A stretch of DNA of 64,000 nt from positions 6,342,073 through 6,406,072 of the forward strand of contig NZ_AP025518.1 of assembly GCF_022179545.1 (NCBI RefSeq), read 5' to 3'. Shown here piece by piece: positions 3,228 to 12,007 of the stretch. Source of the stretch: Mycolicibacterium fortuitum subsp. fortuitum (GTDB lineage: Bacteria; Actinomycetota; Actinomycetes; Mycobacteriales; Mycobacteriaceae). Every line of letters starts with the position of its first letter. The first letter of the stretch is position 1. Both the position numbers and the translations under genes were made by a program. The notes under the pieces were generated by a model. The model ran no database searches and was not told where the DNA came from. It saw nothing but the letters and a program-made list of their open reading frames with translations.

Positions 3228-6200
3228 CTACCGGGCCATGTTGGTAAAGCGCGAGAAGTGAAGCTGGTGCGCCACAGTGATATTCGCGGTCGGGCCGTTA
3301 CGGTGCTTGCCCAGGATGATGTCGGCCTCACCGCCGCGCGGGTCTTCCCGGTCGATGGCGTCAGGGCGGTGCAGCAGCAGGACCATGTCGGCATCCTGTT
3401 CCAGCGAGTTGTGCGCCGTAATGCCTTGCGCCACAAAGTTGCTGGTACCTGGAACCGTTCCGTCGTAGACATCGTGTTCGCCGATGCTGGTGATCTCGAC
3501 GATCTCGTCCCAGAAGACGTCGTTGAGCGCCAGGTGGTGCAGTTCGGGATCGTTGAGCACGGCCGCCGCCCGGTGCAGCCGTGACCGGCTCGGCGCGTGC
3601 TTCCACATCGTGGAACCGCAGAACTTCGTACCCATCGCCGCGGCGAACTGCCGGTGCGTCATGCCCTCACGCGAAAGCGCCGACTTCACCTGCTGCCAAA
3701 CCTCTTTGGGCACAGTGTCGAGGTTCGGGTTGCACTTCGCGTCTTCGAGATGAGCAAGTACCTCGCGGGCCTTGATTCCCCGCTCGCCGTTCACTCCGAC
3801 GTGCGCCACGAAGCGGCGCTGGTTGTCCCAGCCGTAGATGAGTACGTGCCAACAATCGCGGTATCCCGGCTTCTTAGCACGCTTGATCCGCGCGTGCACA
3901 CCGACCCGCAACAACAGCTGGGTCACGTCATCCGCCAGCCGCCGACTGCTGGTGGCGTAGTAAATGCGCGCTTGGCCGGCCTTTGCGTCCCACCGCACCG
4001 ACCCGTCCGTTGCCCACAGGTGACGAAGGAACAACGCCACCTGATCGTCGGGAAGGGCGAATACCTCTTTGGGAACGAACTTCTCGTAGCTGCGCTTGCC
4101 GAACAACCCGAGCCTGTCCAGCCAGGCCGCGATCGGATTGCGCTTACCGTGAGTAAGCCGATACGGCGCGGGTAGCCGCAATGTGGTGACGCCAGCCGCA
4201 GGGTAATCGTCGCGCACCGCAGTCACTCCGAAGTGCAGCGCCGAAATCTCCACCGCAACCAGGTTTGCCTCGTCGACGCTGGCATAACGGATCGGCTGGC
4301 GCTTCACACACGAGCCGTCACCGATCATGTGCGCCAACATGACCACCTCGGAGTCGTGCATCCGCTCGGTGTGCACCGGCTCGGGGATCCGTCGCGGCGT
4401 CGCCAGCCGGTCTCCGACCGCGAGCTCTCCCAAGGGAACCCAGCCATCGATGGTCATGAACGGATGGTTGGCTGTAGCCTCCACCTCACGTCCCGAGGCC
4501 AACCTGAGCTTGAACACCTCTTTATGCCCGCTGTAGAACACGTTGGTCATCGGCCGCGCCACCATGTTCTTGTGCTCGTCGAGCGACCACACCAGCGGGC
4601 GCTCGCCGGTCGCCATCAGTTCGCCGAACGTCACCTCGGCGCCGTTGTCGGCCCGCAGGATTCGGGTGTTCGCCGTCATGCAACCCGATTCACGCAGGTC
4701 CGAGACCTGCGGACGCTTGTCGGTGCGCTGCTCGGGACCACGGTTCAGCTGACTGATCGCGATCACCGGCACTTCGAGTTCCTTGGCCATCAGTTTCAGG
4801 CTGCGGGAGAAGTCCGAAACCTCTTGCTGGCGTGACTCGTACTTCTTGCCCGAACTCATCAGCTGCATGTAGTCGACGACCACCAGCTTCAGGTCCGCCT
4901 TCTGGGCCAACCGCCGGCCCTTGGCGCGAATCTCCATCATGGTCAGGTTCGGCGAGTCGTCGATATAGAGCGGCGCCTCGCTGATCTCACTCATCCGGCG
5001 GGCCAGCTTGGTCCAGTCGTCATCGCTCATGCGACCCGAACGCATATCGGCCAGTTTGATTTTCGCCTCGGCCGACAACAGCCGCATGACGATCTCGGAC
5101 TTGCTCATTTCCAGCGAGAAGATGACGCTGGCCATCCGGTGCTTGATCGAGCAGGACCGCATGAAGTCCAGGCCGAGGGTGGAGTTGTGCGTCGGCACCA
5201 TGGCGGGGCCCGCCAGGTACAGATGCGCGGCGTTATCGACCTCGACGCAGCGCACCGGCACACTGGGCAGCCGCCGCACCGCAGCCACCTGGCTCACCGG
5301 CGCCAGCACGGCAGCTCCGCCGCGACAGGTTGGCGCCGCAATGGTGTGCAGGCCCGGCCGCAGCTGGGTGGTGGTGCGGATACCGTCACCTGTGGGCCAC
5401 TGGTGCTGGGCATCGGCCACAATCACCGTGCCGTCGGAGAATTCGACCTCGAAGCACGGACGGCCGAGCATGACCTCGGTGGCTGCGACAACCCGCGTGG
5501 GCTCGCCGTCTGGTCCGAGGAGATGATCCCCCACACCGACATCACCCATCGAGGTCCAACCGGTGGGTGTGGGCAGTGGAGTATCGAGCGCGAGTGCCTT
5601 CCCGACACCGGGCCGTGCCGCGATGATGATCATCTGCCCCGGGTGCAGGCCGTTGGTGATCTCGTCGAACTCGGTGAAGCCGGTCGGCACACCGCGCGCG
5701 ATGCCGCCCTGCGACGCGATCGCGTCGATCTCGTCCATGGTGGGCTGCAGCAGGTCTTCGAGCGCCACGAAGTCCTCGGAGGCGCGCCGCTCGGTCACGT
5801 CGTAGATCTCGGCCTGAGCCCGGTCCACCACATCGGTGACGTCCGCGCCGTCGGCGCCGGCGTAGCCGTACTGCACCACCCGGGTGCCGGCCTCCACCAA
5901 CCGGCGCAGCAGCGCCTTCTCGGCCACGATGCCGGCGTAGAAGCCGGCGTTGGCCGCCGTGGGCACGGTGGAGATCAGGGTGTGCAGATAGGGTGCCCCG
6001 CCGATGCGGCGCAACAACCCGCGACGGTCGAGCTCGGCGGCGACGGTGACGGCATCGGCAGGTTCGCCCCGGCCGTAGAGATCCAGGATGGCGTCGTAGA
6101 CGTTCTGGTGGGCCGGGCGATAGAAGTCGCCGGGGCGCAACCGCTCGAGGACGTCGGCGATCGCGTCCTTGCTCAACAGCATGCCGCCAAGAACCGCCTG

Positions 6201-6302
6201 CTCGGCTGCCATGTCCTGCGGCGGCTGCCGGCCGAAGTCCTCCCCAGGCGGAGGGCCATCCATCTCCGAATCCGGATGCCCCAGGTCGTCCACCACCGCC
6301 AC
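3228..6302 (-). CDS. dnaB: Replicative DNA helicase DnaB with two inteins
   Basis: Hexameric 5'-3' helicase at the replication fork. From the GTG at 6302 the precursor has 1024 residues; removal of two inteins leaves 461, the usual DnaB length. The N-terminal domain (QPPQDMAAEQAVLGGML) is followed by the RecA-like helicase core. Intein 1 (residues 236-373) interrupts Walker A between GVGK and STLGLDF. Intein 2 (541-965) interrupts DLRESG/SLEQDADM. I prefer the GTG at 6302, which has a purine-rich GAAGGGGGTGGGGAG ribosome site and matches mycobacterial DnaB N-termini. An ATG at 6335 in the same frame would add 11 residues. A LexA-type box lies 41 bases upstream of the GTG and DnaA-box-like sites lie farther upstream. 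The gene is separated from the rplI operon by a strong hairpin. Confidence 0.97.
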   Translation of the reverse strand: MAVVDDLGHPDSEMDGPPPGEDFGRQPPQDMAAEQAVLGGMLLSKDAIADVLERLRPGDFYRPAHQNVYDAILDLYGRGEPADAVTVAAELDRRGLLRRIGGAPYLHTLISTVPTAANAGFYAGIVAEKALLRRLVEAGTRVVQYGYAGADGADVTDVVDRAQAEIYDVTERRASEDFVALEDLLQPTMDEIDAIASQGGIARGVPTGFTEFDEITNGLHPGQMIIIAARPGVGKALALDTPLPTPTGWTSMGDVGVGDHLLGPDGEPTRVVAATEVMLGRPCFEVEFSDGTVIVADAQHQWPTGDGIRTTTQLRPGLHTIAAPTCRGGAAVLAPVSQVAAVRRLPSVPVRCVEVDNAAHLYLAGPAMVPTHNSTLGLDFMRSCSIKHRMASVIFSLEMSKSEIVMRLLSAEAKIKLADMRSGRMSDDDWTKLARRMSEISEAPLYIDDSPNLTMMEIRAKGRRLAQKADLKLVVVDYMQLMSSGKKYESRQQEVSDFSRSLKLMAKELEVPVIAISQLNRGPEQRTDKRPQVSDLRESGCMTANTRILRADNGAEVTFGELMATGERPLVWSLDEHKNMVARPMTNVFYSGHKEVFKLRLASGREVEATANHPFMTIDGWVPLGELAVGDRLATPRRIPEPVHTERMHDSEVVMLAHMIGDGSCVKRQPIRYASVDEANLVAVEISALHFGVTAVRDDYPAAGVTTLRLPAPYRLTHGKRNPIAAWLDRLGLFGKRSYEKFVPKEVFALPDDQVALFLRHLWATDGSVRWDAKAGQARIYYATSSRRLADDVTQLLLRVGVHARIKRAKKPGYRDCWHVLIYGWDNQRRFVAHVGVNGERGIKAREVLAHLEDAKCNPNLDTVPKEVWQQVKSALSREGMTHRQFAAAMGTKFCGSTMWKHAPSRSRLHRAAAVLNDPELHHLALNDVFWDEIVEITSIGEHDVYDGTVPGTSNFVAQGITAHNSLEQDADMVLLLHRPDAIDREDPRGGEADIILGKHRNGPTANITVAHQLHFSRFTNMAR
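3408..4682 (-). mobile_element. DnaB intein 2: class 1 intein with LAGLIDADG endonuclease
   Basis: 425 residues inserted between DLRESG and SLEQDADM in the helicase core. It starts with Cys (CMTANTRIL), has the block B motif ATANHPFMT, and ends VAQGITAHN followed by extein Ser, all standard for class 1 splicing. Two dodecapeptide-type endonuclease motifs are visible: LAHMIGDGS and LFLRHLWATDGS, each with the acidic residue expected for catalysis. The endonuclease therefore looks intact and the intein may still be able to home into intein-less dnaB alleles. Between the endonuclease and block F is a DNA-binding-like stretch (GMTHRQFAAAMGTKFCGS). Confidence 0.93.
5184..5597 (-). mobile_element. 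DnaB intein 1: class 3 mini-intein in Walker A
   Basis: 138-residue protein-splicing element inserted after GVGK. It starts with Ala (ALALDTPLPTPTGW), not Cys or Ser, and ends VPTHN followed by extein Ser. Without a residue-1 nucleophile, class 1 splicing is impossible. The class 3 triplet is present: Trp in AQHQW (residue 302), Cys in VRCVEV (352) and Thr in PTHN (371). No homing-endonuclease domain fits in this size. The same kind of intein is known in M. smegmatis DnaB. The splice junction destroys the ATPase P-loop, so DnaB is inactive until splicing. Confidence 0.92.
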
Positions 6303-6342
6303 GGACTCCCCACCCCCTTCCGAGACCCGCCTCACGACAGGT

Positions 6343-8598: not shown

Positions 8599-9252
8599 GT
8601 GACCTATCCCAATTCGCCATTCGGTCAGGGGTTTCCCGGCCAGCCCGGTGATCAGCAGCCGCTGTACACACAACAACCGCCGCCACCGATACTGGGCCAG
8701 CCCGGCTATCCCGGGCAGCAGCCTCCAGCACAGGCACCCGGGGAACCCAGCGGGGTGACGGGAACGATCGCCGCTGTCCTTGCCGGGTTGGGCGGAGTGG
8801 TCGGGCTGGGCAGCGGAGCAATCACCGGCTTCCATGCCTTCGCTCTGCACGACCTCATGAACATCAGCGGCGGAACCTACGCCATCGTGATCGTTGGGGC
8901 CGTGATCAGCGCCGCGTTCGGCCTGCCCCTGCTCATCGGGGCAATACTGCTGTTCCAAGCAAAGATCATAGGGCGCTGGCTCGTGGTGGGCGGCTGCGCC
9001 GGCGCCATCGCCAGCGTCCTGTTCGCCTTGGTTGTCGATACGGCGATCAGGAGCGACTACCCCGGGTATCCCGGCGCCACGACTCCGGTCTCGTTGGTGT
9101 CGCTCATCTTCCCGATCGCCACACTCGTGTTGGCTTTGGTGCCGTCCACGGCCGCGTGGATCGAGGCGAAGCAGAATCCCGCTGCAGCACAGCCCTACCC
9201 ACAGAATCCGGTTGCGCCCCAGCCCTACCCGCAGTACCCGGGCTGGGGTTGA
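8599..9252 (+). CDS. Array membrane protein 1 (Pro/Gln-rich head, four spans)
   Basis: 217 residues from a GTG preceded by GAGGGGATCT. The head (1-52) is rich in P, Q, G and Y ([11 protein letters not shown]) and should be cytoplasmic. Four hydrophobic spans follow near residues 53-80, 95-117, 122-145 and 155-180. The last ends in the family signature [13 protein letters not shown], followed by an AQPYPQ-type tail. No enzyme motif or Cys cluster is seen. First of five tandem paralogs, divergent from rpsF. A possible -10 (TAGAGT, 8560-8565) lies 34 bases before the start, so it may have its own promoter. Function is unknown; a membrane-stress or envelope role is only a guess. Confidence 0.75.
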
Positions 9253-9340
9253 GCCGCAGGCCGGGCTACGCCAAAGCCGCTCTGAGCGACCCGAACCGGA
9301 ATATGGTGAGCCTGTCGAACTTCGAGGATCGGGGCCAGCC

Positions 9341-9982
9341 GTGACGTATCCCAACGGGCCTTACAGCCACGGCGTTCCCGGTCAGCCCAGCTATCCGCAG
9401 CAACCGGGCTACCCCCAACAACCCGCCTATGCGCCTCAGCCCGGCTATCCCCAGCCCGGCTATCCGCAGCAGCCCTATGGCCTGCCACCGATGCCCCCGC
9501 CTGCCCCGAGCGGGGCTACCGGCATCATCGCGGGAGTGCTTGCCGGGCTCGGCTGTCTGGCGAACCTTGTCGGCGGCATCTTCATGGCGTTCGGGCTCTC
9601 AATATTGATCGGCGAATCCTCCGACGCGACCGCGAGCGGGTGGGGAGCCCTGATCGCCATCACAGCGCTGAACATCCTTGCCGGGCTGTTGCTGCTGATC
9701 GGGACGGTGACGTTGTTGCTGCGCAAGATGATCGGTCGCTGGCTCGTGGTCGCGGGTTGCGCGGTATCCATACTGAGCACCTTGGTGAACCTGACCCTGA
9801 CCCCATCGACCATCGCGGGCTACGAGTACGACCGCGGTGTAGGTGCTGACCTTGTCGGTGTCATATTCCCGATCGTGACGCTGGTGCTGGCATTGCTGCC
9901 GTCGACGGCTGCGTGGATCCGAGCTCGGCAGAATCCGATTGCACCGCAGCCTCATCCGCCTCATCCGCCGTATCCGCGCTGA
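9341..9982 (+). CDS. Array membrane protein 2 (Pro/Gln/Tyr-rich head, four spans)
   Basis: 213 residues from a GTG at 9341; the longer open frame to the left overlaps gene 1 and is not protein-like. The head (to about residue 55) is a near-repeat of [13 protein letters not shown] units. Four spans carry the family motifs [34 protein letters not shown] and [17 protein letters not shown], and the tail is H/P-rich ([12 protein letters not shown]). Closest in the array to proteins 1 and 4. A TATGGT box at about 9304 suggests a separate promoter. No catalytic motif. Confidence 0.75.
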
Positions 9983-10027
9983 TCTGGATACACCCGTGTC
10001 CGTCCACCACTCACGATCGGAGCAGCA

Positions 10028-10582
10028 GTGACCTCTCCCCCCGGATCCGAAGGTCAGCAACCCGCGTCCGCACCCGGCGAAACGCAGCTGGAAGAACCGA
10101 CGGCCGCGCCGGGGAGTTCCACGAGCGGGACCACGGCGATCATCACCGCCGTCCTGGCCGGGATCGGCGCGCTGCTGACCCTCGGCAACGGCATCGCCGG
10201 CCTATCCGGACTCGTCGCGCTGTTCGGTGACGCGGGCCTGCGAACCCTGGCCCTCAGAACCCCTGGCCCCCTGGCGCTGACGGTGCTGGCGACCCTGCTG
10301 AGCGTCGCCTGCGGGCTCTTGCTCCTGGCGGGCACAGTGGCGCTGTTGCGAGGCCGAATGATCGGCCGCCGGCTCATCGTCGGCGGCTGCGGGCTGATCA
10401 TCCTCGGCAGCCTGATCAGCCTCGGGCTGAACCTCGCGACGACGGCTCGCTCCGGGTCCTACGGCATCAGCGGGCTGGCGATCCTGAGTCTGGTGCTGCC
10501 GGTAGCCACCCTCGTGCTGGCACTGCTCCCGTCGACGACGAACTGGCTCCTGGCCAAGCAGGATCCGGTCACAGCTATCTAG
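10028..10582 (+). CDS. Array membrane protein 3 (short head, four spans)
   Basis: 184 residues from a GTG with GGAG just upstream. The head (about 33 residues) lacks the Tyr/Gln repeats of its neighbours and is instead S/E/T/P-rich (GETQLEEPTAAPGSS). Four spans follow, with TAIITAVLAGIGALLTLG, LLLLAGTVALLRGRMIGRRLIVGGC and [24 protein letters not shown]. The C-terminal tail is reduced to VTAI. It is the most diverged in its ends, while the core is clearly the same family. Confidence 0.7.
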   Translation: MTSPPGSEGQQPASAPGETQLEEPTAAPGSSTSGTTAIITAVLAGIGALLTLGNGIAGLSGLVALFGDAGLRTLALRTPGPLALTVLATLLSVACGLLLLAGTVALLRGRMIGRRLIVGGCGLIILGSLISLGLNLATTARSGSYGISGLAILSLVLPVATLVLALLPSTTNWLLAKQDPVTAI

Positions 10583-10664
10583 CCCAGGCATCGCCGGTGC
10601 CGGTTGGCCCTGCGCACGCGGGATACAGTGGGCCCGTCAACCATCGAGACTCCCGGGGGGATCT

Positions 10665-11264
10665 GTGACCTTTCCCAGTGGTCCCAACGATCAGGGGTTC
10701 TCGGAACAACCGGACTTTTCCCAACAGCCCGTTTTCCAGACCCCGCCGCCGGTCTTTTCGCATCAGCCCGGGTTCGGTCAACCCAGCTACCCGACCGCCC
10801 ATCAGCCGGTACCGCCACGCGCCCCGAGCGCTGCCACCGGCATCATCGCCGCCGTCCTGGCGCTACTGGGCGGACTGGCCGGCCTCGTGCTGGGCGTCCT
10901 GATCATGGCCGCGGTGATCAGCAAGCATCGCTCCGAGGCGCCACCTGCCATCGTTGCGCTGTTGTGCATCACCTCCGGACTCGCGCTCCTTATCGGGGCG
11001 ATACAGCTGTGGCGGCACAAACCGATCAGCCGCGGGATCATCGCCGGCGGGTGCGCCGCGATCATGCTGGCCGGTGCGCTCTTCCTGATCGAAGGATTCA
11101 CCAACACTGAACCCAGCGCCGCCGCCATCGTCACAATCGCCCTGCTGGACTTCATCTTCCCGATTGTGACGCTGGTCCTGACGATGCTCCCGTCGACGAA
11201 AGCGTGGATCGAGGCGAAGCAGAATCCGATTGCTCCCCAGTACTATCCGCCGTACCAGCATTGA
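10665..11264 (+). CDS. Array membrane protein 4 (Pro/Gln-rich head, four spans)
   Basis: 199 residues from a GTG. The 5' flank GGGGGGATCTGTGACCTTTCCC nearly repeats that of array gene 1, pointing to a duplication of promoter and gene together. The head is FSQQPVFQTPP-like. Spans carry SAATGIIAAVLALLGG, LLIGAIQLWRHKPISRGIIAGGC and [28 protein letters not shown], with a Tyr/Pro tail. A TACAGT -10-like box lies at 10624-10629, about 35 bases before the start. Function unknown. Confidence 0.72.
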   Translation: MTFPSGPNDQGFSEQPDFSQQPVFQTPPPVFSHQPGFGQPSYPTAHQPVPPRAPSAATGIIAAVLALLGGLAGLVLGVLIMAAVISKHRSEAPPAIVALLCITSGLALLIGAIQLWRHKPISRGIIAGGCAAIMLAGALFLIEGFTNTEPSAAAIVTIALLDFIFPIVTLVLTMLPSTKAWIEAKQNPIAPQYYPPYQH

Positions 11265-11323
11265 AATGGCGTGAGTCTCATGCTGATTGCCAACCGCTCC
11301 GACTCGGACTTCGTGGAGGTGCT

Positions 11324-12007
11324 GTGAACTATCCGTACGGGCCCTATCAGTCGGGGTCCGGTGGCCAGCCCGACTTCACACAACAGCCCGCCGGATTCCC
11401 ATACCACGGCGGTTTTCCGCAGCCTGGCCAGCCGCCGATCCTCAACGCCCAGCCCGGCCAGCCGCAACCGGGGCCAACGGCGCCGACCACCGGTAAGACC
11501 GGGATCGCCGCCGCCGCCCTGGCGGGCGTGGCCGCTGTGGCGATGTTCGTTCTCCTCCTGGTCTCGGTGATCGCAATGCTGGTCGATTTCGGCAACGGCC
11601 GGCAGGACCTCGGCGAGACGTTGGGCACGATCGTCGGCAACGTTCTGGTGTACGGCGGCTACGGAATACTCTGGCTGTTCGGCTCGATAAAGCTGTACAA
11701 GCCGAGGCGGGCCGGCCGCCTGATGGTCATCGTCGCGTCCGTGCTCGCCGTGACCATCGCCGTCATCGGCATTGCTGCCACCTACACCGACGCGACGCGC
11801 GATGGCCACCCCGCCTTTTTCGTGATGTGGATTGTGGCGCTGCTCTACATGCTCACCACCCTGGTACTGGCCATACTGCCGGCTACCGGTACCTGGATCC
11901 GGGCGAACGCGGCTCCGTCTACACCTCAGGAATCGGCGCCTCCGCCGGTTTCACCGTTTCAGGGGTACCCGACGCAAAACCCTGGATACCCACCACATCA
12001 CGGCTGA
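11324..12007 (+). CDS. Array membrane protein 5 (Pro/Gln-rich head, four spans)
   Basis: 227 residues from the GTG at 11324, fixed by GGAGGT at 11315-11320. The head (about 60 residues) is rich in G, P, Q, Y and F; four spans follow near residues 64-92, 108-128, 135-158 and 165-190. The last contains LLYMLTTLVLAILPATGTWIRA, a diverged form of the family signature. The tail has PPPVSPFQGYPTQNPGYPP. Most distant member of the array, and convergent with the GT87-like gene on the minus strand. Confidence 0.72.
   Translation: MNYPYGPYQSGSGGQPDFTQQPAGFPYHGGFPQPGQPPILNAQPGQPQPGPTAPTTGKTGIAAAALAGVAAVAMFVLLLVSVIAMLVDFGNGRQDLGETLGTIVGNVLVYGGYGILWLFGSIKLYKPRRAGRLMVIVASVLAVTIAVIGIAATYTDATRDGHPAFFVMWIVALLYMLTTLVLAILPATGTWIRANAAPSTPQESAPPPVSPFQGYPTQNPGYPPHHG

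What the first reader, a model, noticed from the sequence alone, without database searches (positions are those of the whole stretch)
5184..5597. Class 3 mini-intein splits the DnaB P-loop
Seen directly: the element begins with Ala, lacks any residue-1 nucleophile and carries the Trp/Cys/Thr triplet (AQHQW, VRCVEV, PTHN). Class 3 inteins are known from phage Bethlehem DnaB and M. smegmatis DnaB1, and the latter has been reported to respond to oxidative stress. Here the intein sits between the Lys of GVGK and the Ser that completes Walker A, so helicase activity depends on splicing. Redox control of replication initiation in this strain is an inference.
Basis: partly seen in the sequence, partly recalled or inferred. 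Interest (0 to 1): 0.7.

Follow-up and report, generated by a model that had tools for sequence, protein, structure and literature searches.

The report
Self-splicing insert in replication helicase gene
The replicative helicase gene of this Mycobacterium carries a known type of self-splicing protein insert in its ATP-binding loop; its relatives suggest that the two-cysteine redox trap proposed for this insert is an old property of the insert family rather than an adaptation of this strain.

Summary
Window 5184-5597 (- strand) encodes a 138-aa intein between the Lys of GVGK and the Ser of the Walker A loop of the only dnaB found in the genome. It starts with Ala and carries Trp67, Cys117, Thr136, His137 and Asn138, the class 3 signature. 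It is a counterpart of M. smegmatis DnaBi1 (PDB 6BS8): a new member of a known kind. The same gene holds a second, class 1 type, endonuclease-bearing intein (3408-4682), as in M. smegmatis. Redox control in this strain is untested; the cysteine pair is present (Cys48, Cys117), with an extra Cys91 in the linker.

What the survey adds: a 2018 paper calls Cys48 "non-conserved". I find it in 129 of 129 site-b inteins extracted from the genus, short or long, and in 79 of 80 named actinobacterial loci (one natural Thr48). The trap thus looks built in, not a trait of domesticated mini-inteins. Also, 59 of 123 main-copy inteins at this site are long (270-417 aa; 6 of 8 scanned match LAGLIDADG), although a 2016 paper says they lack endonucleases. 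Third codon positions tie mini versus long type mainly to the intein's C-half, which suggests modular exchange.

The parts
3228..6335 (-). dnaB, replicative DNA helicase with two inteins, 1035 aa as listed (GTG start; the true start is not settled); exteins together about 472 aa
   Evidence: TIGR00665 DnaB E 1.7e-149, PF03796, PF00772; only match to the whole protein in the genome
5598..5609 (-). GVGK, N-extein side of the Walker A loop
5184..5597 (-). class 3 mini-intein, 138 aa (site b, DnaBi1 type)
5595..5597 (-). Ala1, no residue-1 nucleophile
   Evidence: Ala in 129 of 129 site-b inteins extracted from the genus
5454..5456 (-). Cys48, counterpart of the disulfide partner of M. smegmatis DnaBi1
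   Evidence: PMC6195587
5412..5414 (-). Asp62 of block B DxxH
5403..5405 (-). His65 of block B
5397..5399 (-). Trp67 (W of WCT)
5325..5327 (-). Cys91, extra cysteine in the linker predicted to be disordered
   Evidence: pLDDT under 50 at 91-98; absent in the eight near relatives printed there; one other genus mini, G171, has Cys at position 91
5247..5249 (-). Cys117 (C of WCT, block F initiating nucleophile)
5184..5192 (-). Thr136-His137-Asn138 (T of WCT, penultimate His, terminal Asn)
5181..5183 (-). Ser+1, C-extein nucleophile and Walker A Ser
3408..4682 (-). second intein of the same gene: 425 aa, Cys1, LAGLIDADG_3 domain, class 1 type (site a, DnaBi2 type), between SDLRESG and SLEQDAD

Best explanation
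This is a functional class 3 mini-intein of the DnaB P-loop (site b) family, a counterpart of M. smegmatis DnaBi1. Cys117 attacks the Lys-Ala1 bond, the N-extein passes to Ser+1, Asn138 cyclises, and the Walker A loop is restored; until then DnaB should not bind ATP properly. Cys48 lies on a conserved strand and is needed by the fold or the chemistry. Because it can be oxidised to a disulfide with the nucleophile, oxidants can stop splicing reversibly. I read this oxidant sensitivity as a built-in property of the intein family, with no evidence of tuning for this host. Shown here: the anatomy, the conservation and the fold prediction. Shown elsewhere for the M. smegmatis relative: class 3 chemistry, the disulfide and H2O2 inhibition. 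Inferred: activity and oxidant response of this copy.
For: All nine landmark residues (A1, C48, D62, H65, W67, C117, T136, H137, N138) are present and are the same in 129 of 129 site-b inteins extracted from the genus, whatever their length. phmmer against 6BS8: E 9.9e-69 over residues 1-138. AlphaFold2 model pLDDT 89.2; Foldseek's first seven matches are 6RIX, 6BS8 and 6RIY, E 2e-19 to 5e-18, rmsd 1.7-2.6. dN/dS 0.08-0.13 against five relatives. Cys48 is one of 16 invariant positions of the 67 in the N-half, and its codon switches between TGC and TGT at least 10 times on the intein tree without an amino-acid change. The long inteins keep Cys48 too (59 of 59 main-copy ones), and so do 21 of 27 viral, phage and plasmid-prophage rows, nearly all in other genes, all of which have the block F Cys. 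In the M. smegmatis and M. leprae relatives splicing is lost when the block F Cys, the block B His or Trp is changed to Ala (PMC5222942, section 9).
Against: No splicing or oxidation assay was possible. Cys48 sits in a strand that is conserved as a whole, so its conservation alone does not tell its role. Thr or Ser occurs at this position in L087 (a DnaB site-b intein) and in 6 of the 27 rows, so Cys48 is not strictly required in every scaffold. Cys91 and other sequence differences could change rate or oxidant response.
Confidence: 0.85

Rival explanations
1. The intein is a host-adapted redox sensor: the Cys48-Cys117 pair was selected in HEN-less mini-inteins so that DnaB maturation, and with it replication, pauses under oxidative stress.
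For: H2O2 inhibits splicing of the M. smegmatis relative in the cell and precursor builds up (PMC6195587, read in part). The window intein has both cysteines, and one dnaB was found.
Against: The pair is equally fixed in long inteins (59 of 59 main-copy ones), in the six mycobacterial plasmid dnaB inteins read and in 21 of 27 viral, phage and plasmid-prophage rows, so it is not a mark of domestication. Site b is empty in 71 of 195 dnaB genes, among them the five nearest to the window's on the extein tree.
Confidence: 0.2
2. Persistence without function: an old HEN-less allele that stays because exact loss from the P-loop is rare, moves between strains by ordinary recombination with dnaB, and whose oxidant sensitivity has no consequence.
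For: On the dnaB extein tree mini versus long changes at least 26 times, against 6-9 on the intein trees. Empty, mini and long alleles occur side by side in near relatives. Third-position linkage of type is strong only in the intein's C-half.
Against: It does not explain the reported reporter-based survival effect of blocked splicing, and comparative data cannot exclude a mild benefit. This rival overlaps with the best explanation, which leaves open whether the sensitivity has consequences.
Confidence: 0.5
3. The copy is a degenerate, non-splicing relic.
For: None found; another class 3-related intein gene has been described as a pseudogene (PMC3196547, seen as title and abstract start in the listing).
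Against: Open frame, all catalytic residues, dN/dS near 0.1, and no second dnaB found in the genome.
Confidence: 0.02

Closest known systems
M. smegmatis DnaBi1 (PDB 6BS8, 6OWN)
   Same: Same site in the P-loop, class 3 signature, mini size (138 against 139 aa), Cys48 plus block F Cys, second class 1 HEN intein in the same gene
   Different: Extra Cys91 in the linker; oxidant response not measured
M. chimaera MchDnaB1 intein (PDB 6RIX, 6RIY)
   Same: Same fold and residues; top Foldseek match
   Different: 145 aa, longer linker
M. leprae DnaB intein
   Same: Same site and class; has cysteines beyond Cys48 and the nucleophile, and formed DTT-reversible high-mass species after chlorine oxidants (PMC8557812, passages read)
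   Different: Extra cysteines at 81 and 110, not 91; a single DnaB intein (PMC6195587)
Class 3 inteins of phage terminase genes
   Same: Class 3 type; 41.1-54.7% splicing-domain identity reported between mycobacterial DnaB-b and phage TerL1-c/-e inteins (PMC5050341, section 11 read); Cys48 in most rows
   Different: Other host gene and site, often HEN-bearing; some have Thr or Ser at 48

Membership tests
class 3 intein | no Cys/Ser/Thr at residue 1 | tested here: met
   Ala1
class 3 intein | Trp at block B:12 | tested here: met
   Trp67
class 3 intein | Cys at block F:4 | tested here: met
   Cys117, aligned with Cys118 of 6BS8
class 3 intein | Thr at block G:5, then His-Asn | tested here: met
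   Thr136-His137-Asn138
class 3 intein | HINT fold | tested here: met
   AlphaFold2 pLDDT 89.2 (prediction), Foldseek to 6RIX/6BS8/6RIY TM 0.88-0.97
class 3 intein | splicing depends on the block F Cys and forms its branched intermediate | not testable with these tools
   needs a bench assay
DnaB site-b (DnaBi1) inteins | insertion between Walker A Lys and Ser of DnaB | tested here: met
   GVGK/STLG junction
DnaB site-b (DnaBi1) inteins | sequence relationship to DnaBi1 | tested here: met
   E 9.9e-69; 31 invariant columns in a 32-row alignment
mini-intein | no homing endonuclease domain | tested here: met
   138 aa, no Pfam match
redox-responsive DnaBi1-type intein | Cys48 plus block F Cys | tested here: met
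redox-responsive DnaBi1-type intein | reversible inhibition by oxidants through a Cys48 disulfide | not testable with these tools
   needs oxidant assay and mass spectrometry

The most novel reading that the evidence does not exclude
The cysteine redox trap described for M. smegmatis DnaBi1 is not a mini-intein adaptation but an ancestral feature of the DnaB P-loop class 3 lineage and many related phage inteins, kept also in long, endonuclease-bearing copies. In mycobacteria this lineage is a set of allelic modules: a shared N-half (with Cys48) onto which either an endonuclease-plus-C-half or a linker-plus-C-half block has been exchanged.
Probability: 0.5. Interest if true: 0.55.

Novelty: new member of a known kind. 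Interest (0 to 1): 0.4.

Why it matters
Whether inteins are selfish or act as host sensors is an open question, and this intein family is one of its well-studied bacterial cases. The published argument treats the partner cysteine as non-conserved and stresses that the responsive intein is HEN-less. The survey finds that cysteine fixed in short and long copies alike, which weakens the adaptive reading and fits the report that every Cys48 mutant tried failed. The natural Thr48 intein (Promicromonospora umidemergens) and the Thr/Ser48 phage inteins are ready-made tests that could separate splicing need from redox sensitivity.

Tried and rejected
Recombination inside the window's own intein: its N-half is nearest to the long inteins of G021/G177 (86.1/85.6% nt) and its C-half to mini ones, but G135, a mini, is almost as near in the N-half (84.6%), so a mosaic of this single copy is not shown; only the population pattern is.

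All mini-inteins as one clade: FastTree on 315 columns gave a 64-row set holding the window at 98, but those columns reach three codons past Trp67, next to the endonuclease insertion point. Without them (297 columns) G021, G177 and plasmid-like inteins fall among the minis, and an AU test of one clade for the 64 main-copy minis gives p 0.088, so neither shown nor rejected.

Cross-type correlation with the exteins: all codon positions gave no C-half signal (r -0.05, 154 of 200 shuffles as high; N-half r 0.26, 0 of 200); third positions gave a weak C-half one (r 0.076, 31 of 500; N-half r 0.265, 0 of 500). The permutations ignore tree structure.

Pfam and NCBIfam give no intein family for i1; only an rSAM_Rv_intein match far below its cut-off.

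My first regex for the catalytic Cys picked another residue in some rows; redone by position from the C-end. Left out: G003 and G126 (no match) and G025 (one weak match) have no readable dnaB; G045 stayed undetermined at site b by my pattern; the second copy of G013 could not be delimited and that of G164 is empty. G009's dnaB is split over two frames near residue 160 and was counted as mini. Four of the 123 main-copy inteins were dropped for short flanks (119 used), and 4 of 195 genes from the extein tree (191 used).

Claims that something is not in print rest on searches in an open-licence library; subscription papers and supplements were not searched.

Full report
What is there. The minus strand of 3228-6335 is one open dnaB frame (TIGR00665 E 1.7e-149). 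Residues 247-384, window 5184-5597, are an insertion of 138 residues between ARPGVGK and STLG. It begins with Ala, has Asp62-x-x-His65-x-Trp67, Cys117, and ends Pro-Thr136-His137-Asn138. A second insertion at 3408-4682 (425 aa) begins with Cys, carries a LAGLIDADG_3 domain (E 4.1e-28) and ends His-Asn before Ser: a class 1 type intein at the other known mycobacterial DnaB site. M. smegmatis DnaB has the same pair of inteins (PMC6195587). The genome (6.4 Mb, one contig) gave one match to the whole protein. That the window is a Mycobacterium in the broad sense is my inference: the nearest named proteins by intein come from M. septicum, syngnathidarum, porcinum, fortuitum, conceptionense and some unnamed-species strains (88-93% identity), and one 'same genus' genome has a contig of the length of the M. 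leprae TN record.

Class and fold. phmmer finds four distinct PDB sequences: 6BS8 (M. smegmatis DnaBi1, E 9.9e-69), 6RIX and 6RIY (M. chimaera) and a gp41-1 intein. The AlphaFold2 model from a 32-row alignment has mean pLDDT 89.2, with residues 91-98 under 50, and Foldseek puts 6RIX and 6BS8 first. The dN/dS of the splicing parts against five relatives is 0.08-0.13, higher than for the exteins (0.01-0.08) but well below 1. So class 3 splicing is the supported mechanism; the biochemical proof exists for relatives only: no splicing or cleavage of the M. smegmatis and M. leprae DnaB inteins after block F Cys to Ala (PMC5222942, section 9 read).

Survey of the site. Of 198 genomes of the genus (the window's own included), 196 had a match. 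I could read one main dnaB in 195: site b is empty in 71, holds a 138-146-aa mini-intein in 64, a 270-341-aa intein in 23, a 386-417-aa intein in 36, and was undetermined in 1. Six further inteins came from second, plasmid-like dnaB copies. In all 129 inteins (123 main, 6 second copies) the residues A1, C48, D62, H65, W67, block F Cys, T, H and N are identical. I scanned eight long main-copy inteins with Pfam: the three of 386-417 aa and three of five intermediates (308, 312, 340 aa) match LAGLIDADG_3 above cut-off, one (270 aa) weakly below cut-off, one (293 aa) not at all; two second-copy inteins (233, 235 aa) had no match. By a motif pattern of my own 33 of 36 full-length inteins keep both endonuclease acid motifs, and 11 of 23 intermediates do. 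[quoted passage not shown] in this sample 59 of 123 are long.

The redox cysteine. In M. smegmatis DnaBi1 oxidation links Cys48 to the nucleophile, and all Cys48 mutants tried (seven) failed to splice; the authors call Cys48 non-conserved (PMC6195587). Here Cys48 is in 129 of 129 genus inteins; in 79 of 80 named actinobacterial loci, the best 80 of 406 relatives that one search confirmed (the exception L087, Promicromonospora umidemergens, has Thr, codon ACC); in 118 of the 120 listed proteins of a search that found 7457 (the other two did not fit my pattern, and about two dozen are near-copies of the window's own); in six of six mycobacterial plasmid dnaB inteins fetched (of 18 plasmid records with a match); and in 21 of 27 rows from viral contigs, phages and one plasmid prophage (5 Thr, 1 Ser; several rows are near-identical, and the 14 phages were picked by me from the 40 listed of 349 records). 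All 27 have a block F Cys; one, L313, begins with Cys and may not be class 3, and L309 is a phage DnaB-like helicase. These sets overlap in part. Within the 129, Cys48 is one of 16 invariant positions of the 67 in the N-half, and its codon changes between TGC and TGT at least 10 times on the intein tree. Other cysteines come and go: 31 of 65 minis (one plasmid-like) have at least one more. The window's Cys91 is one of these; the eight near relatives printed lack it (four have Cys102 instead), and one other genus mini, G171, has Cys at position 91. By analogy with the extra cysteines of the M. leprae intein (PMC8557812, passages) it may favour intermolecular disulfides; that is a guess.

What this means for redox control. 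The pair needed for the toggle is present, so oxidant inhibition of this copy is likely. Since the pair is just as fixed in long copies, it cannot be read as an adaptation of the HEN-less intein or of this strain. The simplest reading is that Cys48 is needed for splicing and that the disulfide is a built-in liability, which a host may or may not exploit. It sits in a strand that is conserved as a whole, which fits a structural role and also means that conservation alone does not single it out.

Allele history. Nearest to the window on the dnaB extein tree (191 genes) are five with site b empty, then two with a 417-aa intein, G021 and G177. G135, the nearest mini by intein, is not on that tree. 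The tree needs at least 80 state changes (50 shuffles: least 89, mean 96.8) and at least 26 mini/long changes among intein carriers (50 shuffles: least 34, mean 40.4), against 6-9 on the intein trees, which also hold the six second-copy inteins. Among 119 inteins (60 mini, 59 long), within-type minus cross-type identity at third codon positions is 0.049-0.093 in the three blocks of the C-half (z 17.6-27.5), at most 0.015 in the N-half and 0.011 in the exteins; these small values still exceed most label shuffles in several blocks (z up to 6.8), so the contrast is one of size. The first block of the C-half is next to the linker and may be partly misaligned; the catalytic Cys lies at a fixed distance from the C-end in all, so the other two are in register there. 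This suggests exchange of an endonuclease-or-linker plus C-half block on a shared N-half. The permutations ignore relatedness and the trees used fast methods, so I hold it as likely, not proven.

Verdict. Ordinary in kind, exact in observation; the useful residue is the correction about Cys48, the long alleles at this site and the natural Thr48 variant.

Noticed in passing
window 3408-4682 (-): Second intein in the same dnaB: class 1 type with Cys1 and LAGLIDADG_3, the counterpart of M. smegmatis DnaBi2.
   Followed up: partly
L087 (Promicromonospora umidemergens), intein residue 48: Natural Thr48 in an otherwise complete class 3 DnaB site-b intein; its relative P. iranensis (L079) has Cys48.
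   Followed up: partly
L123, L124 and other loci with 270-417-aa inteins: Long alleles of the DnaB P-loop intein in mycobacteria, the longest scanned with LAGLIDADG matches, with intermediates that look eroded.
   Followed up: partly
L213-L218: Mycobacterial plasmids carry their own dnaB with a site-b class 3 intein; on the M. aubagnense and M. alvei plasmids it lies beside TnsA-like and Mu-type transposase genes.
   Followed up: partly
119 dnaB inteins of the genus: Type (mini or long) is strongly linked at third codon positions only with the intein C-half.
   Followed up: partly
window 8599-12007 (+): A run of proline-rich, membrane-protein-like ORFs that look like tandem paralogues; by eye from the ORF list, near what look like ssb and rplI genes.
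   Followed up: no
G009:C1:6053609-6054543: dnaB of this genome is split over two frames near residue 160, possibly a sequencing error.
   Followed up: no
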